64,000 bases of DNA, taken from NCBI RefSeq assembly GCF_008245005.1, contig NZ_CP043427.1, positions 930,001-994,000 of the forward strand, read 5' to 3'. The first letter of the stretch is position 1. Every line of letters begins with the position of its first letter. The translations under genes and the position numbers were made by a program. Source of the stretch: Campylobacter sputorum subsp. sputorum. GTDB lineage: Bacteria > Campylobacterota > Campylobacteria > Campylobacterales > Campylobacteraceae. Below the pieces are notes generated by a model. That model was not told the DNA's origin. It did no database searches and saw nothing but the letters and a program-made list of their open reading frames with translations. This document shows, piece after piece, positions 43,567 through 58,520 of this stretch.

Positions 43567-43643
43567 GGGTTCATAGCTCAGTTGGTTAGAGCATCCGGCT
43601 CATAACCGGATGGTCGTAGGTTCGAGTCCTACTGAACCCACCA
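43567..43643 (+). tRNA. tRNA-Met (CAT)
   Basis: A complete cloverleaf has acceptor GGGTTCA/TGAACCC, anticodon loop CTCATAA and an encoded CCA. The standard paired first base argues for an elongator or Ile-CAT tRNA rather than the initiator. It marks the left border of the toxin island. Confidence 0.95.
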
Positions 43644-43876: not shown

Positions 43877-44077
43877 TTAAATTCCATAAACACATCTTGC
43901 ATTTTGAGTATATGTTGTTTTTTTAGATAAAAAGCCTTTGGAGGTTATTTTGGTATCTAGATAGTTATGGTTTGCTGGTAAATATAAATTTGCTAGTAAT
44001 GGGTTTATACTTAATGATAAAATAAGTATAAATTTAAATATGTTTGAGATATTTTGTCTTAGAAATTTATACTTCAA
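43877..44077 (-). pseudogene. Fragment of a TpsA-like exoprotein
   Basis: The 66-aa fragment has a hydrophobic signal-like stretch (FKFILILSLSINPLLANL) and then LPANHNYLDTKITSKGFLSKKTT, which resembles the internal repeats of filamentous-haemagglutinin proteins. The frame ends soon after in an unrelated tail. It overlaps the upstream immunity candidate by 11 bases. I read it as a joined remnant, not a working protein. Confidence 0.45.
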
Positions 44078-44429
44078 ATTTTATCCATTTTTTAAAATAT
44101 TTTTTATTACTTGCAATTTCATTAGATAAATTCTTAGCCCATATTTCATCAAATAATTCATATTGAATATTTAAAAATTTTATCATTATTAAAAAACTTT
44201 CTTTTAAGGTAAGTTTTGTAGAATTTGAAATTTTACTAGCACTTATAATCCATTGATTATATAAATCTTCATCACCAGCGTTTTCACCAATCCAAATTTC
44301 TGGCGACATTCCACCTAAAAATCCACCCAAATCATCATCTAAATTCTGAAAATACAAATCACTTAAAAATTTATATGAGTAAATATATGCTTCATTTATA
44401 GTTAAATATTTTTTCATATTTATTTCCAA
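44067..44429 (-). CDS. Probable immunity protein for the toxin at 44420-45280
   Basis: The ORF has 120 aa; the ATG at 44417 (MKKYLTINEAY..) is the better start. It has an acidic middle (LDDDLGGFLGGMSPEIW) and a W-rich C-terminus, of the kind seen in small CDI/polymorphic-toxin immunity proteins. It directly follows the toxin gene with an overlap, the standard toxin-immunity arrangement. Family not named. Confidence 0.55.
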   Translation of the reverse strand: MEINMKKYLTINEAYIYSYKFLSDLYFQNLDDDLGGFLGGMSPEIWIGENAGDEDLYNQWIISASKISNSTKLTLKESFLIMIKFLNIQYELFDEIWAKNLSNEIASNKKYFKKWIKFEV

Positions 44430-45280
44430 TTCGGTCTTATTGGCGATGATAGACCAGTTTCTGAATTAAAATTTTTTGGTGTTTTATTTATTCCGCCGTT
44501 GATAATTTGTCCATTTCTAGTTTGCGTCCAAACCTGCTCTCCGTTATCTAAAAGTTTTGCACTCCATGTATTGCCAAATTTATCTTTACCTAAAACTAAT
44601 TTTGTATCATTTGCAACATTTATCAAAAGTTCTCTATTTTGTGGTGTGTCTATAATATGCCCTTCTCGTGTTCCAAATATTTTTTTAGCTTTGTTGTCTG
44701 TTATAATATTTACTTCAATATTTTTGTTAAATTTACCAGTTTTCCCCATAGGTATAAACATAAAACTCATATCACTTAAACCTTGTGGAGTGTTTGGATT
44801 GTAGCTGTGATTATAAAATTGTTCATCTGTTACACTAAAGAAATTAGTTGGTGTAAAGTTTTCTTTGTAATGGTCTATGAATTTTAATCCTTGTGACTTT
44901 TGATATATAAAGTTTATTCCTGTGTTTAGTTCATCTTTGCTAAAGTCTGTTTTACCAAAGAAATTTAATATATTAAATGTACCATTTTCTTTTGCATCTA
45001 CAATATATCTACCAGATAGAAATAGTAAGCTTTTAGCTTCGCTGTCTGTTAATGTTTTTCCAGTTTGTGTTTCATAATATGATTTAAACTCTTTACTATG
45101 CTTGTTTAAAAATTCTTCTTCATCTTTATGAAGTTGTCTATTATAAACTTCAGATGAAGTAGCTAAGTTATATCCTTTATTGGCTCCTTTATCTTCATCT
45201 ATTATAGCTTCAGTTAGTAGTAAATTTGATGATAATAACAATGTAGCTAGAAAGATTAAATTTAAAAATTTAAGCATCAC
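44420..45280 (-). CDS. Secreted polymorphic toxin with pretoxin region
   Basis: The protein has 286 aa. A signal peptide is visible at about residues 1-24. A region HKDEEEFLNKHSKEFKSYY with FSVTDEQFYNHSYN is like the pretoxin part of CdiA/FHA proteins. The C-terminal domain (REGHIIDTPQNRELL.. then NGQIINGGINKTPKNFN) is of a type I associate with the tips of haemagglutinin and RHS toxins, probably an RNase; that call is from memory. The large filament domain is absent, so it is either a secreted toxin by itself or a displaced tip fused to a signal peptide. Confidence 0.6.
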   Translation of the reverse strand: MMLKFLNLIFLATLLLSSNLLLTEAIIDEDKGANKGYNLATSSEVYNRQLHKDEEEFLNKHSKEFKSYYETQTGKTLTDSEAKSLLFLSGRYIVDAKENGTFNILNFFGKTDFSKDELNTGINFIYQKSQGLKFIDHYKENFTPTNFFSVTDEQFYNHSYNPNTPQGLSDMSFMFIPMGKTGKFNKNIEVNIITDNKAKKIFGTREGHIIDTPQNRELLINVANDTKLVLGKDKFGNTWSAKLLDNGEQVWTQTRNGQIINGGINKTPKNFNSETGLSSPIRPNWK

Positions 45281-45283
45281 TAT

Positions 45284-45604
45284 TTATTCCGTTATAAATT
45301 TTTCATACTCTTTAGGAACAACTGGATTTTCTGAAAATAGTAGTGGCATATATTTATAGATATCTACCATTACAATTTCTTGATAAACATTGTCTAAACG
45401 CCAATCTATCGTATCATAGTGTATAGTTGTGTCTTTTACATTTTCTATAACTAAATCCCAATTTTTGATGCCAAAATTTATTATTTCGTTTAATTCATCT
45501 AATGAATATTTCCACTCATTATGGAAAAAATTAAAAACCACAGATATAATTCCATCTCCTTCTATTGAAGACGCTAACAATTCTATTAAATGTTCTTTTT
45601 TCAT
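45284..45604 (-). CDS. Immunity-like protein, family D copy 1
   Basis: The protein has 106 aa (MKKEHLIELLASSIEGDG..). It is a clear paralogue of the proteins at 47654 and 48764, sharing FHNEWKYSLDELNEIINFGI, DWRLDN.YQEIVM and PKEYEKFIT. Acidic and single-domain. It probably counteracts a toxin lost or displaced from this island; family unknown to me. Its start is at 45604. Confidence 0.6.
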   Translation of the reverse strand: MKKEHLIELLASSIEGDGIISVVFNFFHNEWKYSLDELNEIINFGIKNWDLVIENVKDTTIHYDTIDWRLDNVYQEIVMVDIYKYMPLLFSENPVVPKEYEKFITE

Positions 45605-45643
45605 AATTTTCCTTTATTTAAGTGGTATGCGTACTTTTTTACT

Positions 45644-45766
45644 TCCAATTGTTGTTTTAAATATGGAGCTCCATGTATTGGTCTTTAAAATTTTTATATC
45701 CTTTATTAAACTCAAAAAAGCCACCTTTTTATAGTTATCTTTTTAAATTTACTTAGCTATGATTTA
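45644..45766. repeat. Spacer repeat, copy 1 (partner at 49121-49243)
   Basis: This spacer between a family-D and a DUF596-like gene recurs almost unchanged 3,477 bp away. On the minus strand one frame reads ..GFFEFNKGYKNFKDQYMEL.. before a stop, which looks like an eroded toxin tail. The duplicated unit therefore spans immunity gene, spacer and family-D gene. Confidence 0.75.
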
Positions 45767-46231
45767 TTAATAAATTTGTCCTGTATCTTTATCTACCCAG
45801 CGAATATGTGGGCAATTTCCGTACCAAAATTTACCCCATTCAGATTTACCCCACTCATCGTTTTCATCATCCGCTCCATTTAGATATTTTAAATCTGAAG
45901 GAAACTCACTTCTTATATACTCTATCATTTTATCAGATGATACATCCCAAAACTGATCTCCTTGTAGTTCTTTTTCAGGTTCATCTTTTATAGGAGAATG
46001 AGCTAAAATAAGTCCATCATCTATCATTCTTTTAAATAGAGCTAGAAATATCTCAGCTTCTTCTTCATAAGTTATTTTTCTTCCTAGGTCTTTAGCGAAT
46101 AATTCTTTTCCCCAACCATATAAAGAACTTACCCAATTTGAAAAAGCCCAATCATATATTTCTTCTATTTGTTCATCACTAAACATTTTACTATTAATGA
46201 GTAATTTATTTGAATTTGAGTTCTGTTCCAT
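45767..46231 (-). CDS. DUF596-like immunity protein A1
   Basis: The protein has 154 aa from the ATG at 46231 behind AAAGGA; the frame is open to 46267 but those codons belong to an old toxin tail. Its features are EEEAEIFLALFKRMIDDGLI, a WDVSSDKMIEYIRS segment and the C-terminal IRWVDKDTGQIY. It is nearly identical to A2 in the second half and to A3 in the first half. Proteins of this type sit beside CDI/haemagglutinin toxins as immunity factors; the family name is from memory. Confidence 0.7.
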   Translation of the reverse strand: MEQNSNSNKLLINSKMFSDEQIEEIYDWAFSNWVSSLYGWGKELFAKDLGRKITYEEEAEIFLALFKRMIDDGLILAHSPIKDEPEKELQGDQFWDVSSDKMIEYIRSEFPSDLKYLNGADDENDEWGKSEWGKFWYGNCPHIRWVDKDTGQIY

Positions 46232-46302
46232 CTTTAATTCCTTTCGCATCTTTGATTTCTCACTCAAAATAATTCCAGCCTTTTTTAAACACTCTATTGT
46301 TG

Positions 46303-46611
46303 TTACTTAAGCCACCAACCATAATCCAAGTAAATTTTTGGTATTTTATCATTATGGATATCAACTCCAAGCCTATCCATTAAATTAAACCATTTATTTC
46401 TCTTAGATGGTGGGAGTTTTGCACCACAAAAAGGGCAAAATTTTATTAAAATTTCGCTTTCTCCACCATCATGAATAATAATGCCATACTCGTCAAATTT
46501 TGGCGAATATGAAAATAATGCATCTGGACATTCATATTTATTTTTATGAATATCACAATTAAATTTTAAAGCTTGTCTCATTTTATGGCAACAATGTTTT
46601 ATTTTAGACAT
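46303..46611 (-). CDS. Zinc-ribbon immunity candidate (DUF6980-like)
   Basis: The protein has 102 aa. An N-terminal HCCHKM and a central FCPFCGAKLPPSKR suggest a Cys4 metal site; FDEYGIIIHDGGES is the other conserved part. It overlaps the E3-like toxin tip by 8 bases, so it is the natural candidate for that toxin's immunity protein. It does not look like the classical Im3 fold. Confidence 0.6.
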   Translation of the reverse strand: MSKIKHCCHKMRQALKFNCDIHKNKYECPDALFSYSPKFDEYGIIIHDGGESEILIKFCPFCGAKLPPSKRNKWFNLMDRLGVDIHNDKIPKIYLDYGWWLK

Positions 46612-46921
46612 TAGTTTTTCTTCCTTTCACAGCTGGTTTTTCTTTTTTTGTTTTATGATTAATTGAGCCTTGATGTATTCCGCGTTTATTATAAATTTCT
46701 ATATCTCCATGCTGATAGTCCCATTCGTAAATATTTCCATTTTTCTCATCAATCCATCTTTTTCTTTGACTTTTACTACCAACATTTTTTGCATTTGGGA
46801 ATATATCGTTTATATCTTTTGGCGGCGTTTCATAATGATAAATTCCAGCTTTTAGTTTTTTACTTCCATCGCCTTCAGTTGTAATAGGTCCTACATTTAC
46901 AACACCTCTATACCCTATCAA
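46604..46921 (-). pseudogene. Orphan CdiA tip with colicin-E3-type 16S rRNase domain
   Basis: The frame opens near 46976 without an ATG; a TTG at 46921 is the only start. Residues 1-25 repeat the CdiA junction (RGVVNVGP, EGDG, KKLKAG). The rest matches the colicin E3 cytotoxic domain: RKRWIDEKNGNIYEWDYQHG, with Asp68, His71 and Glu75 in the places of E3 Asp510, His513 and Glu517, and a basic tail PAVKGRK. E3 cuts 16S rRNA in the decoding site. Without its own start and export domain it is a silent cassette, though its reading frame and active-site residues are intact. Confidence 0.8.
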
Positions 46922-46976
46922 ATCACTATTATTAAATTCAACGATTTTTTCATTTTTATCTACCGTAATTTTTTGT

Positions 46977-47582
46977 TTATATTAAATATACTCCACATTT
47001 TTTGGCTATTTTGCTGTATTTTTCTATTATAAATTTATTTTTAAAAAATATTGGAAAAAGTTGGTCATAATTGCTTATTAAACAAATTTCATTTTTTGGA
47101 AAAATAAAAAAATGACTAATCCACTGCTCTTTTAATATAAAAGTTATAAAAAGTTTAAGTAATTCAACATCTTTTATCATAAAATACTCACTTTTTATAT
47201 TATGAAAATTTATATATTGGTGAAGTAAAATATACTGAAATTTTATATCTATACCACTATTTAGATATGATAAAAAAGTATCATAATTCATGTTGAAAAA
47301 ATCAGTTTTTATAATACACTTCTTATCATTATCCAAAAAAACTTCCTCAATAAAATTTATAAATTTACACTCTTGTAAGCTCATATAGTATCTATCAGAT
47401 AAGAGCTTAATTCTTTCATCATCTTTGCTTAAAATCATCTCAAAATTACTAAGCAAAGTCTGATTATAATTTAGTCTCATACTTTCAAGTGCTTCATCAA
47501 TATCATCCATAAGTAACTCCGGAAAATGATTTTCGATCAAACTGCTATCTTCTAATATTTTTAATAAAGGTAAATTTTTCAT
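46977..47582 (-). CDS. Island protein of unknown function
   Basis: The protein has 201 aa (MKNLPLLKILEDSSLIENHF..), soluble, rich in Phe, Ile and Lys. It stands just before the E3-like tip, in the place an older immunity gene would have. No family recognised. It may itself be an immunity protein. Confidence 0.5.
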   Translation of the reverse strand: MKNLPLLKILEDSSLIENHFPELLMDDIDEALESMRLNYNQTLLSNFEMILSKDDERIKLLSDRYYMSLQECKFINFIEEVFLDNDKKCIIKTDFFNMNYDTFLSYLNSGIDIKFQYILLHQYINFHNIKSEYFMIKDVELLKLFITFILKEQWISHFFIFPKNEICLISNYDQLFPIFFKNKFIIEKYSKIAKKCGVYLI

Positions 47583-47653
47583 TATTAATCCCTTAAACGT
47601 TTCCCATTCTTATCATAACTACCTTTAATTTTCAATTATCCCAAACATTAAAT

Positions 47654-47974
47654 TTAATTTGTAATAAATTTCTCATACTCCTTTGGAATAACTGGATTTG
47701 ATGAAAATAGCAATGGCATATATTTATAAATATCTATCATAACTATTTCTTGATATATATTATCTAATCGCCAATCTACTCTGTCATAATGTATGTTAAT
47801 ATCATTAACATTTTCTATCAACAAATCTCCGTTTTCTATTCCAAAATTTATAATTTCGTTTAATTCATCTAATGAATATTTCCATTCATTATGAAATAAA
47901 TTATAAATTCTACTTATTATCGCATCTTCTTCAATTGTTGATGATAAAAATTCTATTAAATGGTCTTTTTTCAT
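47654..47974 (-). CDS. Immunity-like protein, family D copy 2
   Basis: The protein has 106 aa and differs from copy 3 (48764) at only a few residues; it is more distant from copy 1. It overlaps the 155-aa gene upstream by 4 bases. Confidence 0.6.
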   Translation of the reverse strand: MKKDHLIEFLSSTIEEDAIISRIYNLFHNEWKYSLDELNEIINFGIENGDLLIENVNDINIHYDRVDWRLDNIYQEIVMIDIYKYMPLLFSSNPVIPKEYEKFITN

Positions 47975-48438
47975 AATTTTTCTTTGTTTAAATTTAAATA
48001 TAAATTCTCTTTTATTTTATGAAATTTTAAATCTTTTATATCTAAAAACTCTATACAATATTCCTTAAAATCATTTAAAATAAATAAAAAATAAAATATT
48101 TTATTTTCATAGATAACTTCACTTGTGATTATCTCTTTTTTAGTTATATTTTTATGCAAACTAAAATCTTTAGAAACTATAAAATTTACATTTAATTCAT
48201 AATATCCGTTTTGTAAGTCGCCTATATAAAATTTTACAAATAAGCTCTTATTTTTATTATTAATCTTAACAATTTTTGCGTCATTAAAATTAATATCGCA
48301 AAAATGCCTAATTATAATATTTGTACTATTTTTAATACTATGTATATAATTATCATACTCTTTTTGTCTTTTGTCATATTCTATATCTAAAATATCGCCC
48401 TTAATCCATTCTAAATTAAAAAATTTCATTTTCTTCAT
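47971..48438 (-). CDS. Island protein of unknown function
   Basis: The protein has 155 aa (MKKMKFFNLEWIKGDILDIEYD..), predicted soluble and beta-rich. It might be an immunity protein by size and place. No family recognised. Confidence 0.5.
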   Translation of the reverse strand: MKKMKFFNLEWIKGDILDIEYDKRQKEYDNYIHSIKNSTNIIIRHFCDINFNDAKIVKINNKNKSLFVKFYIGDLQNGYYELNVNFIVSKDFSLHKNITKKEIITSEVIYENKIFYFLFILNDFKEYCIEFLDIKDLKFHKIKENLYLNLNKEKL

Positions 48439-48467
48439 TTTGGCAAACTTTAATTTGTTAGGTGAAT

Positions 48468-48719
48468 TTATATTTTACTATCTGTATTTTGTATCAAAAT
48501 TCCAAATTTAGCTTTTTTAGAAAAGAATTTACTTCCGGCAACGCTTTTTCCTATACAAATATTATCGTTTCTCGTCTCTTTGGCTTGTGCTTTTATTAAG
48601 TCAGCTAAAAACATTAAAGTTTTTGAATCTCCTTTTATAAAAAATATATCATCTTCTATCCAAGTGTTTATGGATATATTTTCTTTTGAATATTTTTCAC
48701 AAATTTTATCTGTTTTCAT
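48468..48719 (-). CDS. Small immunity candidate (possibly Imm32-like)
   Basis: The protein has 83 aa. FIKGDSKTLMFLADLIKAQA resembles the helical motif of Imm32-type immunity proteins; this is a weak, remembered likeness. It is a separate gene between two other immunity candidates. Confidence 0.45.
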   Translation of the reverse strand: MKTDKICEKYSKENISINTWIEDDIFFIKGDSKTLMFLADLIKAQAKETRNDNICIGKSVAGSKFFSKKAKFGILIQNTDSKI

Positions 48720-48763
48720 TTATTGTAATTCCTTTTAGTTTTTAATTATCTAAAAAATTAAAT

Positions 48764-49084
48764 TTAATTTGTAATAAATTTCTCATACTCCTTTGGAATA
48801 ACTGGATTTGATGAAAATAGTAATGGCATATATTTATAAATATCTATCATAACTATTTCTTGATATGTATTATCTAATCGCCAATCTACTCTATCATAAT
48901 GTATGTTAATATCATTAACATTTTCTATAAATAAATCTCCATTTGCTATTCCAAAATTTATAATTTCGTTTAATTCATCTAATGAATATTTCCATTCATT
49001 ATGGAAAAAATTATAAATTCTACTTATTATCGCATCTTCTTCAATTGTTGATGATAAAAATTCTATTAAATGGTCTTTTTTCAT
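48764..49084 (-). CDS. Immunity-like protein, family D copy 3
   Basis: The protein has 106 aa, almost the same as copy 2. Together with the spacer at 49121 and immunity gene A2 it mirrors the unit at 45284-46231, so the order A gene, spacer, D gene was duplicated as a block. Confidence 0.6.
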   Translation of the reverse strand: MKKDHLIEFLSSTIEEDAIISRIYNFFHNEWKYSLDELNEIINFGIANGDLFIENVNDINIHYDRVDWRLDNTYQEIVMIDIYKYMPLLFSSNPVIPKEYEKFITN

Positions 49085-49120
49085 TTTTGCTCATTTTAAT
49101 GAACTATGCATAATTTTATC

Positions 49121-49243
49121 TCCAATTGTTGTTTTAAATATGGAGCTCCATGTATTGGTCTTTAAAATTTTTATATCCTTTATTAAACTCAAAAAAGCCA
49201 CCTTTTTATAATTATCTTTTTAAATTTACTTAGCTATTATTTA
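49121..49243. repeat. Spacer repeat, copy 2
   Basis: It is nearly identical to 45644-45766 and has the same genes on both sides. Confidence 0.75.
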
Positions 49244-49696
49244 TTAATAAATTTGTCCTGTATCTTTATCTACCCAGCCCCAGCGAATATGTGGGCAATT
49301 TCCGTACCAAAATTTACCCCATTCAGATTTACCCCACTCATCGTTTTCATCATCCGCTCCATTTAGATATTTTAAATCTGAAGGAAACTCACTTCTTATA
49401 TACTCTATCATTTTATCAGATGATACATCCCAAAACTGATCTCCTTGTAGTTCTTTTTCAGGCTCATCTTTCATAGGAGAATGAGCTAAAATAAGTCCAT
49501 CATCTATCATTCTTTTAAATAGAGCTAGAAATATCTCAGCTTCTTCTTCATAAGTTATTTTTCTTCCTAGGTCTTTGGCAAATAATTCATCTCCTAAGCC
49601 ATACAATGCATCTACCCAATATCCAAAATAATATTCCAAAACATATTCTATATGTTCTTTTGTAAACATATTAGAATTTATTAATAACTCTTTCAC
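49244..49696 (-). CDS. DUF596-like immunity protein A2
   Basis: The GTG at 49696 behind AAAGGA gives 150 aa; upstream codons to 49711 have no start signal. The C-terminal two thirds are nearly identical to A1, while the N-terminus (TKEHIEYVLEYYFGYWVDALYGLG) is like A4, so it is a mosaic. It follows the orphan toxin tip at 49721 and is its likely cognate. Confidence 0.7.
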   Translation of the reverse strand: MKELLINSNMFTKEHIEYVLEYYFGYWVDALYGLGDELFAKDLGRKITYEEEAEIFLALFKRMIDDGLILAHSPMKDEPEKELQGDQFWDVSSDKMIEYIRSEFPSDLKYLNGADDENDEWGKSEWGKFWYGNCPHIRWGWVDKDTGQIY

Positions 49697-49720
49697 AACT
49701 ATTCCTTTCAAACTAAATTT

Positions 49721-50044
49721 TTATTCAAACTTAAATTCATACTTTCTCATAAAATCTTTCATTTCTGGACTTGATTTATTTGGTTTAAAATCCATAGTCC
49801 ATTTTGGCTTACTACCATCTTGTAAGTTTGATTTAGAAAAATCTCTTAAATTAAATTTTCCTTGTTTGTTATGTATAGTGTATCTATTTCCTACAAATTT
49901 ACCAGTTTTTTTATCAAACACTTTTTCTATTTTTGGCATCTCCTTAACTCCTGCTGTATCTTTAAAGAATTTAAATACATCTTTATCTGGTACATTTTTA
50001 AATACCTTAACACCGCCTTTATTTGTATATTTTACTACTACCAA
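49721..50044 (-). pseudogene. Orphan CdiA toxin tip, copy 1
   Basis: The frame of 107 codons opens inside the end of the previous immunity gene without ATG (TTG at best). Its first 30 or so residues, NKGG.KVFKNVPDKDVFKFF and TAGVKEMPK, equal the segment before the toxin domain in the full CdiA. The toxin part (GKFNLRDFSKSNLQDGSKPK, then EFKFE at the end) differs in sequence from the CdiA tip but belongs to the same family. It is followed by immunity gene A2. Confidence 0.75.
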
Positions 50045-50204
50045 CCCATCTCTATTTTACCTGTATCTTTATCAACCCAGCCTATTCTAGGACAATAATT
50101 TCCAAACCAGTATGGAATTGTATCATCATCTGAGTAGTCTGGGTCTAATGGCATATGTTTTCTAATATATTCTATAGCTTCATTGGATGATATGTCCCAT
50201 ATTC
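49931..50204. repeat. Direct repeat of toxin junction plus immunity end (partner 52302-52575)
   Basis: About 274 bp recur with only a mismatch or two at an offset of 2,371 bp. They cover the conserved toxin lead-in and the C-terminal end of immunity genes B1 and B3. The first roughly 97 bp also recur in cdiA at 54187-54283. These are natural crossover sites. Confidence 0.85.
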
Positions 50205-50475
50205 TAAAATTTTGCTTAATTTGTATAGGTGTGATGTAATCTTCGATTTTTTCTTTATAAAATTCCTCTGGAGGAAAAAGAAAAGCAAATCCTTCATCTA
50301 ATAAGGCTTTTAAAATTATAAAAAAAAGTTCATTTTCCTCTTCTTGGCTTAATAGTCTATCAAAAAACAACTCATCCCCCCACCAATTATAATGCAAAAT
50401 GCTTATCCAAGAACCATAAGAATACTCATATATTCTATTTAATAAATCATCTGTTATTTTTATATTACTAAGCAT
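50038..50475 (-). CDS. DUF596-like immunity protein B1
   Basis: The protein has 145 aa from the ATG at 50475; a TTG at 50493 is less likely. The pattern is WISILHYNWWGDELFFDRLLSQEEENELF, then FPPEEFYKEKIEDYITPIQI, then YCPRIGWVDKDTGKIEMGW. The first part is identical to B3, while the middle is like C. It precedes orphan tip copy 1. Confidence 0.7.
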   Translation of the reverse strand: MLSNIKITDDLLNRIYEYSYGSWISILHYNWWGDELFFDRLLSQEEENELFFIILKALLDEGFAFLFPPEEFYKEKIEDYITPIQIKQNFRIWDISSNEAIEYIRKHMPLDPDYSDDDTIPYWFGNYCPRIGWVDKDTGKIEMGW

Positions 50476-50485
50476 TACTTCTTCT

Positions 50486-50640
50486 TTATTCAAATTTTAA
50501 TTCATACTTTCTCATAAAATCTTTCATTTCTGGACTTGATTTATTTGGTTTAAAATCCATAGTCCATTTTGGCTTACTGCCATCTTGTAAGTTTGATGTA
50601 AAAAATAGATTTTTAACAATAACCTTACTCAAAATCAAAC
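50486..50640 (-). pseudogene. Eroded toxin tip (3' end only)
   Basis: It reads ..TSNLQDGSKPKWTMDFKPN.. and ends in YELKFE at 50486. The N-terminal part is lost into the end of immunity gene C. The tail overlaps the start of B1. Confidence 0.7.
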
Positions 50641-51059
50641 TCGATTTTACCATTTTTACTAACCCACCCAATTCTTGGACAAAAATTACTAAAACAATAA
50701 CCATCGCTCATTTTTTGATTAAATACCATATAGAGCTTTTTTGGAATTTTTTTACGCATATAATATATTACATCTTTAATAGGAATGTCCCAAATTTGAT
50801 ATCCTTGATTTATCCTTATAGGCGTTATATATTTTTTTAAGTTTTTATTATAAAATTCTTCTGGTGGGAAAAAAACTATTTTGTTTTCATATGCCCATAT
50901 TTCTAAAAGAATAAAAAAAGACTTATAGACATATTTATTGTTTATAATAGTAGATAAATACCAAGGAATCTGATCTATCCAAGAATTATACAATTCTTTA
51001 AAAATATCATCTTTTTTATTAAAAATATATTTTTCTATATTACTCAAATTTGATTTCAT
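50625..51059 (-). CDS. DUF596-like immunity protein C
   Basis: The protein has 144 aa and is the most divergent of the nine (MKSNLSNIEKYIFNKKDD..). It keeps the family pattern FFPPEEFYNKNLKKYITPIR, IWDIPIKDVIYYMRKKIP and FCPRIGWVSKNGKIEFDFE. Its ATG is inside the previous toxin tail. Confidence 0.65.
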   Translation of the reverse strand: MKSNLSNIEKYIFNKKDDIFKELYNSWIDQIPWYLSTIINNKYVYKSFFILLEIWAYENKIVFFPPEEFYNKNLKKYITPIRINQGYQIWDIPIKDVIYYMRKKIPKKLYMVFNQKMSDGYCFSNFCPRIGWVSKNGKIEFDFE

Positions 51060-51172
51060 AATTACTTACTTTACTTTTATCAATCAATTTAATATCCATA
51101 GTCCATTTTGGCTTATTGCCATTAGATAATTTAGATTTTAAATTATATCTTAAATAATTGATTTTACTATTA
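51040..51172 (-). pseudogene. Eroded toxin tip (3' end only)
   Basis: The frame reads INYLRYNLKSKLSNG, NKPKWTMDIK and ends YEIKFE at 51040, overlapping the start of gene C. No start codon or junction remains. Confidence 0.7.
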
Positions 51173-51176
51173 TTTA

Positions 51177-51623
51177 TTAATAAATTTGTCCTGTATCTTT
51201 ATCTACCCAGCGAATTTTAATACTTCTTTCATACCAAAATTTACCCCATTCATCATTTTCATCATCTACGCCATCTAGATATTTTAAATCTGAAGGAAAC
51301 TCACTTCTTATATACTCTATCATTTTATCAGATGATACATCCCAAAACTGATCTCCTTGTAGTTCTTTTTTTGGTTCTCCAAGTGGGGCATGAGCTAAAA
51401 TAAGTCCATCATCTATCATTCTTTTAAATAGAGCTAGAAATATCTCAGCTTCTTCTTCATAAGTTATTTTTCTTCCTAGGTCTTTAGCGAATAATTCATT
51501 TCCCCAACCATATAAAGAACTTACCCAATTTGAAAAAGCCCAATCATATATTTCTTCTATTTGTTCATCACTAAACATTTTACTATTAATGAGTAATTTA
51601 TTTGAATTTGAGTTCTGTTCCAT
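51177..51623 (-). CDS. DUF596-like immunity protein A3
   Basis: The protein has 148 aa from the ATG at 51623. The N-terminal half is nearly identical to A1 (SDEQIEEIYDWAFSNWVSSL) and the C-terminal half identical to A4 (LGEPKKELQGDQF, YERSIKIRWVDKDTGQIY), so it is another mosaic. Confidence 0.7.
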   Translation of the reverse strand: MEQNSNSNKLLINSKMFSDEQIEEIYDWAFSNWVSSLYGWGNELFAKDLGRKITYEEEAEIFLALFKRMIDDGLILAHAPLGEPKKELQGDQFWDVSSDKMIEYIRSEFPSDLKYLDGVDDENDEWGKFWYERSIKIRWVDKDTGQIY

Positions 51624-51672
51624 CTTTAATTCCTTTCGCATCTTTGATTTCAAAAGTCCATTTTGGCTTACT
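51598..51672 (-). pseudogene. Eroded toxin tip (last 24 codons)
   Basis: GSKPKWTFEIKDAKG and GTELKFK, then the stop at 51598, overlap the A3 start. The same tail, further broken, lies before A1 near 46205-46262. Confidence 0.65.
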
Positions 51673-52093
51673 ACCAGCCCATCTCTATTTTACCTGTATC
51701 TTTATCAACCCAGCCTATTCTAGGACAATAATTTCCAAACCAGTATGGAATTGTATCATCATCTGAGTAGTCTGGGTCTAATGGCATATGTTTTCTAATA
51801 TATTCTATAGCTTCATTGGATGATATGTCCCATATTCCATATCCATCTATATCCATTCTAGTAGATACAAACTCGTCTTTTTTTACTAAATCGCTTGGTG
51901 GATATAGCACAATAAGTCCTTCATCTAAAAGACGTTTTAAAACTGCAAGAAAGAGTTCATTTTCTTCTAACCAATCAAAATCCTCATAATCACTATGATA
52001 AACAATACCTATCCAGCAACCATAAGCATCTTTATACACATTATGAGAAATTCTTTTTATTATCTCTTTTTGTTTATCTGTAAAATTATTCAA
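51671..52093 (-). CDS. DUF596-like immunity protein B2
   Basis: The protein has 140 aa with a TTG start at 52093 that has GGAG at a good distance, inside the end of the orphan tip. The C-terminal part (LIVLYPPSDLVKKDEF to GKIEMGW) is identical to B3; the N-terminal 45 residues are unique. It is the likely cognate of orphan tip copy 2. Confidence 0.7.
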   Translation of the reverse strand: MNNFTDKQKEIIKRISHNVYKDAYGCWIGIVYHSDYEDFDWLEENELFLAVLKRLLDEGLIVLYPPSDLVKKDEFVSTRMDIDGYGIWDISSNEAIEYIRKHMPLDPDYSDDDTIPYWFGNYCPRIGWVDKDTGKIEMGW

Positions 52094-52415
52094 ATTTTAA
52101 CTCCCTTGTTATGATTTTGCCTTTTGAATCTGTTCCAATAGGAACTTCCATTGTCCATCTAGCTGATTTGCCATTAGATAGTAAAGAGTTTGAATTATGT
52201 CTTAAATTTATTTTACCTTTACCTGTGTCTACTGTATAGATGGTTATTTTTTCTTTTATTTTTTTACCGTTTCTTGTGACTTCAGTAGTTGTTTTTCTAG
52301 CTTTTGGCATCTCTTTAACTCCTGCTGTATCTTTAAAGAATTTAAATACATCTTTATCTGGTACATTTTTAAATACCTTAACACCGCCTTTATTTGTATA
52401 TTTTACTACTACCAA
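52086..52415 (-). pseudogene. Orphan CdiA toxin tip, copy 2
   Basis: The 109 codons have no ATG. The same lead-in as in CdiA (NKGGVKVFKNVPDKDVFKFF) is followed by a different toxin half: RKTTTEVTRNGKKIKEKITI, then GKINLRHNSNSLLSNGKSA and RWTMEV. It is a third sequence variant of the tip family, placed before immunity gene B2. Confidence 0.75.
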
Positions 52416-52575
52416 CCCATCTCTATTTTACCTGTATCTTTATCAACCCAGCCTATTCTAGGACAATAATTTCCAAACCAGTATGGAATTGTATCATCAT
52501 CTGAGTAGTCTGGGTCTAATGGCATATGTTTTCTAATATATTCTATAGCTTCATTGGATGATATGTCCCATATTC
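52302..52575. repeat. Direct repeat, partner of 49931-50204
   Basis: This copy covers the lead-in of orphan tip 2 and the end of immunity gene B3. Confidence 0.85.
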
Positions 52576-52840
52576 CATATCCATCTATATCCATTCTAGT
52601 AGATACAAACTCGTCTTTTTTTACTAAATCGCTTGGTGGATATAGCACAATAAGTCCTTCATCTAAAAGACGTTTTAAAACTGCAAGAAAGAGTTCATTT
52701 TCTTCTTCTTGGCTTAATAGTCTATCAAAAAACAACTCATCCCCCCACCAATTATAATGCAAAATGCTTATCCAAGAACCATAAGAATACTCATATATTC
52801 TATTTAATAAATCATCTGTTATTTTTATATTACTAAGCAT
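52409..52840 (-). CDS. DUF596-like immunity protein B3 (chimera of B1 and B2)
   Basis: The protein has 143 aa from the ATG at 52840. The N-terminal part equals B1 through ..SQEEENELF; from LAVLKRLLDEGLIVLYPPSD onward it equals B2. The switch lies near 52698. This is direct evidence of recombination within immunity genes. Confidence 0.75.
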   Translation of the reverse strand: MLSNIKITDDLLNRIYEYSYGSWISILHYNWWGDELFFDRLLSQEEENELFLAVLKRLLDEGLIVLYPPSDLVKKDEFVSTRMDIDGYGIWDISSNEAIEYIRKHMPLDPDYSDDDTIPYWFGNYCPRIGWVDKDTGKIEMGW

Positions 52841-52850
52841 TACTTCTTCT

Positions 52851-52995
52851 TTATTCAAATTTTAATTCATATTTTTTCATAAAATCTTTCATTTCTGGAC
52901 TTGATTTGTTTGGTTTAAAATCCATAGTCCATTTTGGCTTATTGCCATTAGATAATTTAGATTTTAAATTATATCTTAAATAATTGATTTTACTA
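52851..52995 (-). pseudogene. Eroded toxin tip (3' end only)
   Basis: The frame reads INYLRYNLKSKLSNG and KPKWTMDFKPNKSSPEMK, ending YELKFE at 52851 just before B3. Its first part matches the remnant at 51040 and its last part the one at 50486. Confidence 0.7.
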
Positions 52996-53002
52996 TTATT
53001 TA

Positions 53003-53431: not shown

Positions 53432-53452
53432 GGTGCTATCTCCTGTCAAAGA

Positions 53453-53560
53453 CTACTCAAATTTTATTTCATATTTTTTCATAAAATTTTGCATTTCCGG
53501 ATTTGATTTTTATAGCTATCTTGTTCCGCTAATTTAGAAAAGTTTCTTCAATCTAAAAAA
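53453..53560 (-). pseudogene. Eroded toxin tip with frame breaks
   Basis: RNFSKLAEQD and, in another frame, KSNPEMQNFMKKYEIKFE with the stop at 53453 remain of a toxin 3' end. It is the most recent displaced tip by position. Confidence 0.6.
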
Positions 53561-53997
53561 ATTTTACCCGTCTCTTTATCTACCCAATAAATTTCAGGGC
53601 AATCTTCATACCAAAATTTAATATATGCTGTATCTGTGTCCTCCAAACCTTTTAAATGTATTATATCTTTTGGAAAAACACTTCTTATATACTCTATCAT
53701 TTTATCTGATGATACATCCCATACACTAAGTCCATCTATCTCTTTTTCTGGCGCATCTTTAGTTGGCGATATTGCTAATATAAGTCCATCATCTATCATT
53801 CTTTTAAATAGAGCTAGAAATACTTCAGCCTCTTCTTCATATGTTAATTTTCTTTCTAGTTGTTCTGAAAAGAATTCATTTCCCCATCCATATAAACAAT
53901 TAACCCAGTATCCTAGATTTTCATTATAAATCACATCTATTTGTTCTTTTGTAAAAATATTAGAATTTAAAAAATTTATACCCATTTTGATGCTCAC
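53548..53997 (-). CDS. DUF596-like immunity protein A5, cognate of CdiA
   Basis: The protein has 149 aa with a GTG at 53997 overlapping the cdiA stop by 4 bases; an ATG at 53985 is an alternative. It shares the family pattern (EEEAEVFLALFKRMIDDGLI, WDVSSDKMIEYIRSVFP, YWVDKETGKI) but is more distant from A1-A4. Its place directly after cdiA makes it the immunity protein for the current tip. Confidence 0.75.
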   Translation of the reverse strand: MSIKMGINFLNSNIFTKEQIDVIYNENLGYWVNCLYGWGNEFFSEQLERKLTYEEEAEVFLALFKRMIDDGLILAISPTKDAPEKEIDGLSVWDVSSDKMIEYIRSVFPKDIIHLKGLEDTDTAYIKFWYEDCPEIYWVDKETGKIFLD

Positions 53998-56804
53998 TTA
54001 AATTTTAATTCTATGTTATTTTTTGTATTAGGTAATTCTTTTATTTGCAAAGTCCAGCTAAAGACACTCCCATCTTTTGATTTTTGTGTTGCAAAATCTC
54101 GCAAAATATAATCAACGCCATCTTTTTTAATTATATATATCTCACCTTTAAATTTTCCGCTTTTTTTATCAAACACTTTTTGAGCTTTTGGCATCTCCTT
54201 AACTCCTGCTGTATCTTTAAAGAATTTAAATACATCTTTATCTGGTACATTTTTAAATACCTTAGCACCGCCTTTATTTGTAGGATCTGCTAAGTATGTT
54301 TTACCAGCTATAGTTATAGCACCTGCTTTATTTTTTTTATCAAATAGTTTTTTTATTTGATTTTGGTTATTTCCTGGAGATGAAGTTATTTTATTATTTG
54401 TTTTGTTTTTAACTTGCTTTTTAGCATTATCCCCAGCTTTTAGTTTTTTACCTCCATCGCCTTCGATCGTAACTGGCCCTACGTTTACAACACCTCTATG
54501 CTCTATCAAATCACTATTATTAAATTTAATACCAGCTTTTATAAAAACTTTTTTCATAAACTTACTGTGATATTCATCTTTTTCTAATGCTTTAGATAGA
54601 TCATACTTAAGCAATGGTCCGGTTCTAGCTCTTCCCAAACCATCGCCATGATCGAAATCATGACATTGAACACATTTTTGAATAAATGATTTTGTTAATT
54701 TATCTATAGCTTCTTTAGATATTTTTTTAACAAAAGATGATCTAAAAGTAGCTTGGACAACTCTTGCACCTAAAGATATTACAACTGGTGCTACATTATC
54801 ACTGGAGTATTTATCTAGTTCGTTAAAAAACTCTTCATTATATAATACTTTTTTATCATAACTATTTGCTTTTGTATCTTGATACTTATATAGTGGTTTT
54901 TTATCTTTTAAGCTTTCATTCAGATAGTAAGTTAGTAGATATCCTTGATGATTTGCTAATATATCTTGTTCTTTATCATTTGGTATAAAATTACCTTTAG
55001 AAAAACTAATTAAATGATAAAGCTCATGTCCTAAAGCTTTGGTTAGTTTTACTGGATTATTTATATATGCTAAATTTATATAAATGGAATTTGGAGTAGC
55101 GGTATTAAAATTTCCTAAAAATTGAGAGTTATTTGCTCCTATTTCATAAGTATTTAATAAAACTACATTTATCTCATCGCTATAACCAAAATTTTTTGCA
55201 TAAGAGGTCATAAATTTGCTTAAAATTTCCTCTTTTTCTTTAATGTTTAAGTTATCTTGAAAAATTTCTATAAATAAATTGCTATTTGTTTTTAAAACTT
55301 TATCAATGATATTTAAGTTTTCAAATTTACTATTTTTGTTAAAAAATAGTTTTGTATAGATGTGAGTGTTATACAAATTTGAGTTTATAATATTTGTATT
55401 GTTTGATAATAAAACTCCATCTTTAGATAAAAAATTAGAATTGGTTGAAATAAAGTTATTTGTATAAATTTCTAAATGATTATTTGCTTTTATAAGTGAG
55501 TTTAAATTTATAAAATCATAAGTGTTATAAATTTCTAAATTATTAGCATAAATTTTACCTTTATTTATAATACTATCGCTATTAATAGTTGCAAAGTAGT
55601 AATTATAAATCAGACCCTCATTTGATAAAAATTTAGTTTGCAGATCTAGCTTTATGCTTTCTAATGTGTCATTATTTTTTATGCTGTTTGACTTTATATC
55701 TAAAATAGCAGAAGATATTAAGGAGTCATTATCTATATTTTTTGCTTTTAAACTTAGGGATGAATTTGATACTAAATATCCTTCATTTATTATCTCTTTG
55801 GCTTTAATTTCTATCTTTTTATTAGAGATTATATCACCACTATTAATCAAATCTCCATTAGAACTTATTTCTATAAAATTACTTGCTACTATTTTACCTT
55901 TATTATTTACACCAATACCATTCTTGGTGCCTACTAGCTTTATTTTATTAGCATACATTCCGCCAAGAGATGAGCTGTCTATAGAAAATTTTGAAGTTTT
56001 TATACTGTTTTCATTATTTGATAAGATACTACCATCTTTGTTAATAGTATTATCTCCAGTTATGATATTTATCTCATTAGCATGAATGCTTGCATTTATC
56101 TTTGCACTATGCGTTAGGATATTTAAATAATTGCTCTCATCTTTTAAACCTCTAGAAGTAATTAAAATTTCACCTTTATTAACTGCTATATTTTTAATAC
56201 CACCATTTTCATACTCTATATTTCCAGTTGTTAGTGTTGTAGATTTAGAGTTTATAAAGTGAGTTCCATCTATATTTATACCACTTGGATTTGCTATGAT
56301 TAAATCAGCCTTATCTCCTGCTATTTCTATATTACCGGTTAAAATGCTTTTTTCATTAGAATTTACTTTATTTACTATAAGCTTAGCTGAACTCTTGCTA
56401 AGGTGTGGATTTGCATGAATATAACCAGCTGTTATGGTATCGCTTCCAACCATTGAGTTATTTAAAATAGTTCCATCTTTAGATGCATCAAATTTAGAGT
56501 ATTCATTCATAGATATACCATTATTGTTAGGCTTGGTTATATCTATTAAAACTGCATTGTTTGGAGTTTTTAAAATAGTTGGCTGATTATGTTTGGGAGC
56601 ATTAATATCAGCTATAATATTAGCTAGGATTGGGTTTGGGGATATAAGGGATAAAGAGATTAGGATGGATAGAGGTTGGTTTAAAGTTTTTAAATTTATG
56701 AATTTAGGCTTTTTAATATTTAAAAAATTATAAAAAGATAGATTTTTGGTTAATACTTTATGAAAGAGAGGTTTATTATTTAATGAATTGTTTTTATTAT
56801 TCAA
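53994..56804 (-). CDS. cdiA: TpsA/CdiA-like two-partner-secreted toxin
   Basis: The protein has 936 aa with a TTG start behind AAGGA, 10 bases after cdiB. It has a long N-terminal signal (about 1-60, cleaved near ILAN) and a TPS domain with NPSGINIDG for recognition by the transporter. A short Asn/Ser-rich beta-helix runs to about 520. A zincin-like ALGHELYHLISF is near 590, CVQCH near 710, the junction RGVVNVGP..KKLKAG near 768-785, a second conserved segment KVFKNVPDKDVF near 845, and the toxin tip to 936. It is far shorter than typical CdiA (over 3,000 aa), so it is a minimal filament. The tip's activity is unknown. Confidence 0.85.
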   Translation of the reverse strand: MNNKNNSLNNKPLFHKVLTKNLSFYNFLNIKKPKFINLKTLNQPLSILISLSLISPNPILANIIADINAPKHNQPTILKTPNNAVLIDITKPNNNGISMNEYSKFDASKDGTILNNSMVGSDTITAGYIHANPHLSKSSAKLIVNKVNSNEKSILTGNIEIAGDKADLIIANPSGINIDGTHFINSKSTTLTTGNIEYENGGIKNIAVNKGEILITSRGLKDESNYLNILTHSAKINASIHANEINIITGDNTINKDGSILSNNENSIKTSKFSIDSSSLGGMYANKIKLVGTKNGIGVNNKGKIVASNFIEISSNGDLINSGDIISNKKIEIKAKEIINEGYLVSNSSLSLKAKNIDNDSLISSAILDIKSNSIKNNDTLESIKLDLQTKFLSNEGLIYNYYFATINSDSIINKGKIYANNLEIYNTYDFINLNSLIKANNHLEIYTNNFISTNSNFLSKDGVLLSNNTNIINSNLYNTHIYTKLFFNKNSKFENLNIIDKVLKTNSNLFIEIFQDNLNIKEKEEILSKFMTSYAKNFGYSDEINVVLLNTYEIGANNSQFLGNFNTATPNSIYINLAYINNPVKLTKALGHELYHLISFSKGNFIPNDKEQDILANHQGYLLTYYLNESLKDKKPLYKYQDTKANSYDKKVLYNEEFFNELDKYSSDNVAPVVISLGARVVQATFRSSFVKKISKEAIDKLTKSFIQKCVQCHDFDHGDGLGRARTGPLLKYDLSKALEKDEYHSKFMKKVFIKAGIKFNNSDLIEHRGVVNVGPVTIEGDGGKKLKAGDNAKKQVKNKTNNKITSSPGNNQNQIKKLFDKKNKAGAITIAGKTYLADPTNKGGAKVFKNVPDKDVFKFFKDTAGVKEMPKAQKVFDKKSGKFKGEIYIIKKDGVDYILRDFATQKSKDGSVFSWTLQIKELPNTKNNIELKFK

Positions 56805-56813
56805 AGCGTATCC

Positions 56814-58520
56814 TTAAAATGTGTATGTTAGACCAAAGTTTAAAGCTACTTTATCGGTCTCAAAATATTCCGGTTTACTTAGTGCTTTACCAACAAAGAT
56901 ATCATATCCAAGAGAGCCACTTGGTTTAAAATTCCCTTTTAATCCAATACCCACGCCAGCTAAAGCATTTTTTGAATCATGTAAACCAGCTTGTGGCGTT
57001 ACATTACCAATATCAAATGCAAAATATGTCTTATGATTATTTATATAGTCGTATTCTAGGGTATTGCGGATTAAAAACCCTCTATCTCCAACTAAGCTCA
57101 TCTCACCATCAAATCCACGAATAGTATAATATCCTCCTAGACTTATACGCTCTTGCATAGTTAAAGGAGTGCCATTATACATAGCTTGAAATTTTAAATC
57201 ATATGTTAAAGGTATGTTGCTAGATGATTTGCGAAAGCCAAAATTTAAAATATATTTTTCAAACCTGCTAGTTCCGCCGTTATAATCCTCTTCTAGTGCT
57301 CTTAGTGATCCTCTAGCACCTGTGCCTTTTTTATAAGAGGCGCCAAGTACAATAGATCCATTTCCTATATAAAACTGCGAATTTAACCCTATCTCATATC
57401 CAGCTGTTTTTCGTCTTTGGTTATCCAACTCGTAATCTTGTATGAAATTTTTATTTTCTCTCTCCCAAAGACGAAGATATATGCTATTTTTTGAGATTTG
57501 ATTACGATGATACAAATAATTTAGCGTTAAATTTCTATTTTTACTTTCTCCACTATATTTATAAACACCATATGCTCCAGCTATGGCTTGATCATAATTA
57601 TATTTGTATTCGTTAAAATCAAGTGAAATTCTACCAAATGGCAGAGTAAAACCATAATAAATACTATCATTGCCACCATTTTCACTCTCGTTATTTACTC
57701 TTTGATGTTCGCCTCTAAATATATTTTTAGTGTATGATAGATATAAAATTTCATTAAGTCCTAATAAATTTAAGCCTTGTACACTCGCATCACCCTTATA
57801 CTTGCCAGTAGCGTCTGAGCCTGAGTTATCGAAGCTAAGTTGAGCTATTATAGGGAAAGATTTTTGTTTAGTGATATTAATATTTGTAAAATTTGGTTTT
57901 AAAGAAGGGATGAGTTCTACGCCAACTTGTGCATTTGATGAGTTTTGAAAAACTTCAAGAGCCTGCTCAATATCTCGTAAATTTAAATCATCACTACTAA
58001 CATTACCGCCAAATGCCATAAATGCGGAAATTTTATCAGTTGTGTTATTGCTTTCATTTATAAGTATTTGATCTATTTTTCCTTCAAGCACTTCAAATGT
58101 TAATGTTTTTTCTGTTTTTATGTTTTGATTAGGGATTATCACGCTTGTAGTTATAAGTCCGCTAGATATTATCTCATTACTAAAAGCAGAGTGTAAAATG
58201 GCTATACTCTTCTTACCAAGACACTGCCCTTTTTGAAATTTTACCTTTTTAAGTACTTTTTTTAGGCGGTCTGAAAAATTATCTTTGTTTTTGCCGGTTA
58301 AATTGATATCATTTATTACAAAACAAGGTTTTTCGTTTAAAATAAGTGAAAATTTCTCATGCTTGCTTTTTGGTTGTAAATTTATGTTTGAGTTTGGCAT
58401 ATTTTCTTGAAGTTGCTTTAAATGTTGCTGTTCATTTACAAATTCTCTTTGTTGGATTTGCCTTTCGTTAGAATAAAGCAACGACAAAGCAAAAATAAAA
58501 CAAAAAATAATTTTTAACAT
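56814..58520 (-). CDS. cdiB: TpsB/CdiB outer-membrane transporter
   Basis: The protein has 568 aa. A signal peptide (about 1-17), the POTRA region PCFVINDINLTGK with FEVLEGKID, and a 16-strand barrel follow. The barrel carries YTIRGFDGEMSLVGDRG, the VRGY-type motif of the lid loop in FhaC/ShlB. It exports the TpsA encoded downstream. The last residue is Phe, as expected for BAM substrates. Confidence 0.92.
   Translation of the reverse strand: MLKIIFCFIFALSLLYSNERQIQQREFVNEQQHLKQLQENMPNSNINLQPKSKHEKFSLILNEKPCFVINDINLTGKNKDNFSDRLKKVLKKVKFQKGQCLGKKSIAILHSAFSNEIISSGLITTSVIIPNQNIKTEKTLTFEVLEGKIDQILINESNNTTDKISAFMAFGGNVSSDDLNLRDIEQALEVFQNSSNAQVGVELIPSLKPNFTNINITKQKSFPIIAQLSFDNSGSDATGKYKGDASVQGLNLLGLNEILYLSYTKNIFRGEHQRVNNESENGGNDSIYYGFTLPFGRISLDFNEYKYNYDQAIAGAYGVYKYSGESKNRNLTLNYLYHRNQISKNSIYLRLWERENKNFIQDYELDNQRRKTAGYEIGLNSQFYIGNGSIVLGASYKKGTGARGSLRALEEDYNGGTSRFEKYILNFGFRKSSSNIPLTYDLKFQAMYNGTPLTMQERISLGGYYTIRGFDGEMSLVGDRGFLIRNTLEYDYINNHKTYFAFDIGNVTPQAGLHDSKNALAGVGIGLKGNFKPSGSLGYDIFVGKALSKPEYFETDKVALNFGLTYTF

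What the first reader, a model, noticed from the sequence alone, without database searches (positions are those of the whole stretch)
43877..58520. A CDI island built as a stack of immunity genes and eroding toxin tips
Downstream of cdiBA there are nine DUF596-like immunity genes (A1-A5, B1-B3, C). In front of most of them lies a toxin 3' end of the CdiA tip family: two longer but start-less orphan tips and five or six eroded tails whose stop codons overlap the next immunity start. Immunity genes stay intact while toxins decay. This looks like repeated replacement of the active tip, with old toxin-immunity pairs pushed downstream and only protection kept: a DNA record of past toxins and possibly a broad immunity bank in one operon. 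A cassette of this depth in a Campylobacter with such a short CdiA seems unusual to me.
Basis: partly seen in the sequence, partly recalled or inferred. Interest (0 to 1): 0.85.

Follow-up and report, generated by a model that had tools for sequence, protein, structure and literature searches.

The report
Recombining bank of CDI immunity genes
Behind a toxin-delivery gene pair, this Campylobacter-family bacterium keeps about seventeen intact antidote-type genes, most without a complete toxin, and several of nine related ones have been swapping halves with each other; similar arrays are known elsewhere, but this one is deep and shows the shuffling clearly.

Summary
cdiB and a short cdiA (936 aa) are followed by nine intact homologous immunity genes. 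Before them lie the active tip, two start-less orphan tips and six eroded tails. Corrections: Pfam does not support DUF596, and the array is larger: 17 immunity-type genes, three only candidates, including an orphan colicin-E3-type tip with a DUF6980 partner. Seven of nine comparisons tested show significant synonymous excess. The family occurs in 8 of 153 Campylobacteraceae genomes, this one included, and not in the sister species.

"Old toxins displaced, immunity kept" fits, and is already published for CDI, meningococcal TPS and T6SS loci. A chronological stack does not fit: A2–A5 are four combinations of two front and two back halves, with one switch point inside the gene (0 of 20,000 shuffles), and position does not track similarity to the active pair. 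Exchange points lie in the toxin linker, the toxin end and the middle of the immunity gene. In what I read, crossovers inside tandem immunity paralogues were described for T7SS (esaG, tipC), not for CDI. Expression and protection are untested.

The parts
56814..58520 (-). cdiB, outer-membrane TpsB transporter, 568 aa
   Evidence: Pfam ShlB 1.6e-81, POTRA_2 and POTRA_3; 94% identical to the sister species' copy
53994..56804 (-). cdiA, short TpsA exoprotein, 936 aa, carrying the active tip; HELYH motif at residue 593
   Evidence: Pfam TPS 6.8e-36; translation
53994..54281 (-). active tip with the shared linker (NKGGAKVFKNVPDKDVFKFFKDTAGVKEMPK) at its start
   Evidence: tip profile E 7.9e-47; linker DNA repeated at 98% (100 bp) and 94% (133 bp) in the two orphan tips
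53548..53985 (-). immunity A1, cognate of the active tip by position
53454..53509 (-). eroded toxin tail before A2, about 18 codons
53003..53431 (-). immunity A2: front like A4 (88%), back identical to A3
52851..53000 (-). eroded toxin tail before B1
   Evidence: tip profile E 2.9e-17
52409..52858 (-). immunity B1: front of B3, middle of B2, back shared by all three B genes
52086..52400 (-). start-less orphan tip 2 (before B2)
   Evidence: tip profile E 7.1e-48
51671..52093 (-). immunity B2
51598..51670 (-). eroded toxin tail before A3, its end overlapping the A3 start; its junction with B2 shares an 8-nt repeat with an intact tip
51177..51623 (-). immunity A3: front of A5 (99%), back of A2
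51040..51177 (-). eroded toxin tail before C, overlapping its start
   Evidence: tip profile E 2.5e-9
50625..51059 (-). immunity C, most divergent member
50486..50608 (-). eroded toxin tail before B3
   Evidence: tip profile E 8.0e-14
50038..50493 (-). immunity B3
49721..50029 (-). start-less orphan tip 3 (before A4)
   Evidence: tip profile E 8.3e-55
49244..49711 (-). immunity A4: front like A2, back of A5
48764..49084 (-). 106-aa immunity-type gene J3; the stretch before it, shared with J1, is taken for another toxin's tail (inference, no match)
48468..48719 (-). 83-aa ORF, candidate immunity gene only
   Evidence: no family match
47971..48438 (-). 155-aa ORF, candidate immunity gene; 46% relative in the G045 CDI locus
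47654..47974 (-). 106-aa gene J2, 96% identical to J3
46977..47582 (-). 201-aa ORF, candidate immunity gene; an ORF in the G079 CDI array begins alike (by eye)
   Evidence: no family match
46604..46921 (-). orphan tip with colicin-E3-type cytotoxic domain, with cdiA-like sequence at its start
   Evidence: Pfam Cytotoxic PF09000 1.2e-15; 77% match to CdiA 766-791
46303..46611 (-). DUF6980 partner of the E3-type tip
   Evidence: Pfam 9.5e-47
46206..46259 (-). eroded toxin tail before A5, its end overlapping the A5 start
45767..46231 (-). immunity A5: front of A3, back of A4
45284..45604 (-). 106-aa gene J1
44420..45280 (-). 286-aa orphan tip headed by a signal-peptide-like leader
44067..44429 (-). 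120-aa immunity-type gene; the 286/120 pair is 90% identical in the sister species, and the gene's product 83% in G072
43877..44077 (-). 66-aa leader plus cdiA fragment, truncated

Best explanation
This is a CDI (two-partner secretion) locus whose downstream array works as an immunity bank, maintained and reshuffled by homologous recombination. New tip-immunity cassettes enter behind cdiA; old tips lose their 5' end and then their core. The paired immunity genes are kept because neighbours may still carry the old toxins. Exchange happens between conserved stretches in the toxin linker, around the toxin end, and in the middle of the immunity gene, so crossovers inside immunity genes yield chimeras, duplications and a shuffled order. 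Shown: gene content, intactness, chimerism, block boundaries, and synonymous excess in most tested pairs. Inferred: toxicity, protection, expression, and that the N-half sets specificity.
For: CdiB and TPS domains. Nine open homologous immunity genes, nowhere else in the genome. Tip remnants before them. Synonymous over non-synonymous change: A2/A4 front 11 of 27 against 7 of 120 sites, p 1.6e-5; J1/J2 p 9.8e-14; J2/J3 p 0.011; A1 against A2 and A5 p 0.0023 and 0.00022. Chimerism: in the last part A2=A3 and A4=A5 are 100% identical in DNA (middle 100% and 98%), while in front A3/A5 are 99% and A2/A4 88%. 71 of 72 informative sites support these two groupings and separate at one switch at nt 101-216 of A2, bar one site upstream of the gene; 0 of 20,000 shuffles. 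B1 is B3 in front and B2 in the middle, chi 98 on 102 sites. One eroded junction shares 8 nt (TGGTAGTA) with an intact tip. Two other immunity-type families in G070 have constant 3' ends (97-100%), and one tip-immunity pair there is 95-100% at the tip start and 40-67% from there to the last bin (98%). The sister species has the same island site with different middle content.
Against: Expression is unknown; promoter counts match shuffles (108 against 110.2) and terminators are 1 against 4.0, which says little. Synonymous excess is not significant in B1/B2 front (p 0.29) and B1/B3 middle (p 0.34); pairs are not independent, and selection may have acted before the genes reached this array. Toxin tails do not always travel with the immunity front: A2, A4, B1 and B3 share one tail type (80-96%) although A2/A4 and B1/B3 fronts differ (48-53% identical). 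Members of the family are broken in G033, G036 and G072. Toxin activity is unproven; the main tip family has no Pfam or PDB sequence match. CdiA is short and has no VENN.
Confidence: 0.7

Rival explanations
1. Silent-cassette reservoir: the orphan modules are kept to be recombined onto cdiA, changing the active toxin and immunity, as proposed for orphan cdiA-CT and tpsC cassettes. A crossover in the shared linker would put tip 2 or tip 3 on cdiA, with B2 or A4 directly behind, and delete the genes between.
For: Orphan tips 2 and 3 begin with the cdiA linker at 98% over 100 bp and 94% over 133 bp and keep an open core; the E3-type orphan also starts in cdiA-like sequence. Recombination onto the main gene is reported, as rare, for tpsC cassettes (PMC3848433, abstract and discussion part 1).
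Against: Six of the eight orphan A/B/C remnants keep only the end of the toxin, yet their immunity genes are intact. Switching would delete immunity genes that appear selected.
Confidence: 0.35
2. Neutral debris: the array is an accumulation of tandem duplications and leftovers with no present function, intact only because it is young.
For: Some blocks are 99.6-100% identical, so recent; relatives in three other genomes are broken.
Against: Older pairs with many synonymous changes keep reading frame and amino acids (A2/A4 front, J1/J2). Toxin parts of the same array are cut down while 9 of 9 immunity genes are open.
Confidence: 0.12
3. Chronological stack: each replacement pushed the former pair one step downstream, so order records history.
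For: The general layout (active pair first, remnants behind) matches the model published for Vibrio T6SS and Acinetobacter CDI. The most distal pair (286/120) is shared with the sister species.
Against: No trend of similarity with position (rho 0.28, p 0.51, n 8); chimeric genes and repeated blocks show reshuffling.
Confidence: 0.12

Closest known systems
Tandem esaG and tipC immunity paralogues of type VII secretion (Garrett et al. 2022, PMC9484751; abstract and two sections read)
   Same: Strings of non-identical immunity paralogues with conserved blocks at which recombination swaps gene parts, changing copy number and sequence
   Different: Different secretion system and proteins; in what I read no toxin remnants were mentioned between the esaG genes (a tspA fragment lies in the tsaI cluster), while here a toxin remnant precedes each of the eight orphan members
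Orphan cdiA-CT/cdiI arrays (Poole et al. 2011, PMC3150448; passages read)
   Same: Start-less toxin tips followed by immunity genes downstream of cdiBAI; eleven pairs in E. coli EC869
   Different: There homology is at the VENN-coding sequence and the tips beyond it are unrelated; here there is no VENN, nine immunity genes are homologous, several recombined internally, and most tips are eroded
Acinetobacter type-II cdi orphan regions (PMC6336857; passages read)
   Same: Displaced remnants with a predominance of immunity genes, explained by stepwise insertion; some tandem duplication
   Different: Stepwise order was inferred there for one large region; here it is scrambled
Meningococcal tpsA/tpsC/IORF islands (Arenas et al. 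2013, PMC3848433; abstract and part 1 of the discussion read)
   Same: TPS exoprotein with downstream truncated cassettes and immunity ORFs; collection of immunity proposed as the goal
   Different: There the immunity ORFs stay with their tpsC and show no similarity to other IORFs
Vibrio cholerae T6SS immunity gene arrays (Kirchberger et al. 2017, PMC5361080; abstract, opening and one section read)
   Same: Effector displaced, immunity retained in arrays
   Different: T6SS; duplication was argued against there, while duplication or conversion is plain here
Polyimmunity loci (Zhang et al. 2012, PMC3482391; passages read)
   Same: Tandem arrays of paralogous or mixed immunity genes as defence back-up
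   Different: Described as usually without toxin cassettes; this one sits behind an intact cdiA

Membership tests
CDI two-partner secretion system | TpsB transporter of the ShlB/FhaC type with POTRA domains | tested here: met
CDI two-partner secretion system | TpsA exoprotein with TPS secretion domain and a variable C-terminal tip followed by a small immunity gene | tested here: met
   TPS 6.8e-36; tip followed at once by A1, tip variants in the array
CDI two-partner secretion system | VENN/PT-VENN pretoxin region | tested here: not met
   no such Pfam match at E<=1, no VENN in the protein; some CDI classes lack it (recalled)
CDI two-partner secretion system | contact-dependent growth inhibition blocked by the immunity protein | not testable with these tools
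   needs experiment
DUF596 (PF04591) | profile match over cut-off | tested here: not met
   no match at E<=1 for the nine proteins; genome search empty, its controls empty too
Orphan cdiA-CT/cdiI array | start-less cdiA-CT fragments each followed by an immunity gene downstream of cdiBA | tested here: met
Displacement array (effector lost, immunity kept) | immunity genes intact, toxins lost | tested here: met
Displacement array (effector lost, immunity kept) | array order reflects order of insertion | tested here: inconclusive
   no trend with position, reshuffling; no strain series available
Recombining tandem immunity paralogues (esaG/tipC kind) | discordant relationships of gene parts with switch points in conserved blocks | tested here: met
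Homogeneous polyimmunity locus | four or more tandem paralogous immunity genes | tested here: met
   nine in one family, three in another

The most novel reading that the evidence does not exclude
The array is not only a store but a generator: crossovers between conserved stretches in the toxin and in the middle of the immunity gene swap blocks around the toxin-immunity junction, so chimeric immunity proteins (A2-A5, B1) gain neutralising ranges that none of their parents had. The constant-3'/variable-5' layout of immunity genes seen here and in G070 would then be a general device for exchanging CDI specificities while toxin and antidote stay linked.
Probability: 0.2. Interest if true: 0.65.

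Novelty: new variant of a known kind. Interest (0 to 1): 0.42.

Why it matters
It shows in one locus how CDI immunity repertoires can be built and remixed: immunity genes under constraint, toxins deleted, and exchange at points inside the immunity gene and not only at module ends. It offers natural chimeras, four combinations of two front and two back halves, in which the question of which half sets toxin specificity can be tested directly. It also extends deep immunity arrays to Campylobacteraceae.

Tried and rejected
Rejected: the DUF596 label. The chronological record. Uniqueness in kind within the family: G053, G070 and G069 hold 5, 4 and 3 paralogues. That count used 18 of the 20 stretches (16 genomes, at most 20 kb each; two G001 flanks left out) besides the window. 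Five of the 18 hold no cdiB, several are cut by contig ends, two overlap in G079, and the G070 array reaches the end of its stretch, so depths elsewhere are lower bounds; 36 of 153 genomes have a cdiB, so not all loci were seen, and the 15 stretches were not counted. A first version wrongly dropped the window's nine genes because a 433-aa fused relative in G132 was treated as CdiA; corrected.

Of 19 dN/dS comparisons computed (ratios 0.10-0.78, all below 1) nine were given to Fisher's test. Tried without result: PDB sequence searches with the tip and the immunity profile (nothing below E 0.28); promoter and terminator scans; the search for related loci in named genomes, one relative, from a single pattern. 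The 106-aa family gives only sub-threshold TetR_C_5 matches. A signal-peptide test on all 53 orphan fragments gave no enrichment over other ORFs (14 of 53 against 89 of 329); an enrichment appeared only after restricting to fragments whose cdiA similarity starts at residues 13-50 (12 of 18), a cut chosen after seeing the data. The trio test for mosaics can mislead when one parent is remote (for example C), so I rely on trios with near-identical parts. I considered that G078 might support a natural short CdiA, but its frame is interrupted after the TPS part, so I do not claim it.
Full report
Setting. The window is G000:C1:930001-994000 of a 1.75 Mb single-contig genome. The family is taken as Campylobacteraceae: G072 contig C19 and a contig titled 'Campylobacteraceae bacterium' are both 6408 bases and both were hit by the same profile. 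The island runs leftwards from cdiB (58520-56814) to near a tRNA-Met gene (43567-43643). The only other genome held of the genus, G001, has cdiB at 94% identity at the same site, with two long cdiA genes (2716 and 2135 aa), a different set of tips and immunity-type genes, and the same distal 286/120 pair beside the tRNA (90% DNA). The nine-member immunity family gave no match in G001. A C. ureolyticus paper reports two hecA genes, one with hecB directly upstream (PMC3758288, passages), which resembles G001; that G001 is this species is only my guess.

Observation. The nine immunity genes, both long orphan tips and six eroded tails are there. The nine share 15 invariant columns. The array is larger than described: three 106-aa paralogues (92% mean column identity), an orphan tip with a colicin-E3-type domain (PF09000, 1.2e-15) followed by a DUF6980 gene (9.5e-47), a 286-aa tip with a 120-aa partner, and three unassigned ORFs of 83, 155 and 201 aa. 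That makes 17 immunity-type genes; apart from their position and pairing nothing here proves immunity, and three are only candidates. DUF596 was not recovered for any of the nine.

Immunity kept, toxins lost. Nine of nine are open. Of the eight tip remnants before the other eight genes, two keep a full-length frame and six keep only the end. Nineteen dN/dS comparisons all lie below 1 (0.10-0.78). Nine of them were tested: seven show a significant synonymous excess (p from 9.8e-14 to 0.014) and two do not (B1/B2 front p 0.29; B1/B3 middle p 0.34). In other genomes the picture is mixed. The profile hits 8 of 153 genomes of the family including this one, and the same 8 of 397 drawn from the class. 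Members are intact in G051, G063, G077 and G132, and broken in G033, G036 and G072. In G051 a tip with three stops stands directly before an intact immunity gene.

Chimeric genes. Block comparison: in the front part A3 and A5 are 99% identical and A2 and A4 88%, while A2/A3 and A4/A5 are only 70% and 67%. In the middle and back parts A2 and A3 are 100%, A4 and A5 98-100%, and across these pairs 90-92%. All four combinations of two front and two back halves are present. Of 72 informative sites, 46 support the front grouping, 25 the back grouping and 1 neither. They separate at one switch between nt 101 and 216 of A2, with a single exception upstream of the gene, and none of 20,000 shuffles reaches the statistic. 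B1 equals B3 in front and B2 in the middle (chi 98 on 102 sites); the back is 99-100% alike in all three B genes. The back block continues into the next toxin remnant: 416 bp at 99.8% between A2 and A3, ending just past the AAGCCAAAATGG motif of the tail. The front block travels with its toxin tail in A3/A5 (100%) and B1/B3 (96%), but the B1/B3 tail type also stands before A2 and A4 (80-96%), so there is a further exchange point around the toxin end. The two longer orphans share the toxin linker with cdiA (98% over 100 bp, 94% over 133 bp).

How tips erode. At the B2-A3 junction the sequence follows the B1/B3 downstream context up to TGGTAGTA and then an intact tip from the same 8-nt repeat onward. 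This fits a deletion between short repeats. It is one junction of six; the others were not tested this way.

Is this general? In G070 two other immunity-type families both have constant 3' ends (99% over the last two 45-column bins in one, 97-100% over the last four in the other) and variable fronts. One pair of tip-immunity modules there is 95-100% over the first 180 columns, 40-67% after that and 98% in the last bin. Trio tests with no shuffle of 2000 reaching the observed value: window A/B/C family 61 of 246, G070 2 of 12, G053 1 of 30, G069 1 of 3, the window's J family 0 of 1, the second G070 family 0 of 3. Depth: the largest same-locus immunity-type family was 9 in the window, then 5, 4, 3 and 2 or fewer in 18 other stretches (limits under Tried and rejected).

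Order. Position in the array does not predict identity to A1 (rho 0.28, p 0.51, n 8). Together with the chimeras this argues against reading the array as a time series.

Place among known systems. The layout belongs to orphan CDI arrays (PMC3150448), the logic to displacement arrays (PMC5361080, PMC6336857, PMC3848433) and polyimmunity loci (PMC3482391), and the recombination resembles that of tandem immunity paralogues of T7SS (PMC9484751). What I read of each is stated under Closest known systems. In nine searches, judged from listings and the passages named, I saw no description of crossovers inside CDI immunity genes, nor of such an array in Campylobacteraceae. The library lacks most subscription journals, so this is weak evidence of absence.

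Verdict.

Noticed in passing
45280-44420 and 44077-43877; also G001, G051, G053, G069, G070, G072, G079: Orphan cdiA fragments whose cdiA similarity starts only at residues 13-50 are often headed by a signal-peptide-like leader: 12 of 18, against 89 of 329 other same-strand ORFs (p 0.0008). The cut was chosen after seeing the data, the other contrast (1 of 31 with similarity from the start) is partly built in, and there is no enrichment over all 53 fragments.
   Followed up: partly
54330-55364: The middle of CdiA carries a HELYH motif (zinc-peptidase-like, recalled); this region matches 7 of 153 family genomes including this one, best other G078 at 66%.
   Followed up: partly
L067 1648-2949 (G132): A 433-aa ORF holds two domains of the A/B/C immunity family in one frame, a fused immunity protein.
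   Followed up: no
L053 (G001): The sister species has a second, 2135-aa cdiA without its own cdiB, 96-98% identical to the first over about 1400 residues.
   Followed up: no
L056 and L057 (G079:C1:1646700-1684199): Two cdiB genes with 100% identical products, each followed by a long cdiA (2861 and 2862 aa).
   Followed up: no
49620-48774 and 46137-45294: A4-J3 and A5-J1 are paralogous segments (851 bp, 89%) in which the last part of the immunity gene is 100% identical but the J proteins only about 80%, again pointing to local conversion.
   Followed up: partly
47582-46977 and the G079 array: A 207-aa ORF in the G079 CDI array begins much like the window's 201-aa ORF (seen by eye), which would support the latter as an immunity gene.
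   Followed up: no
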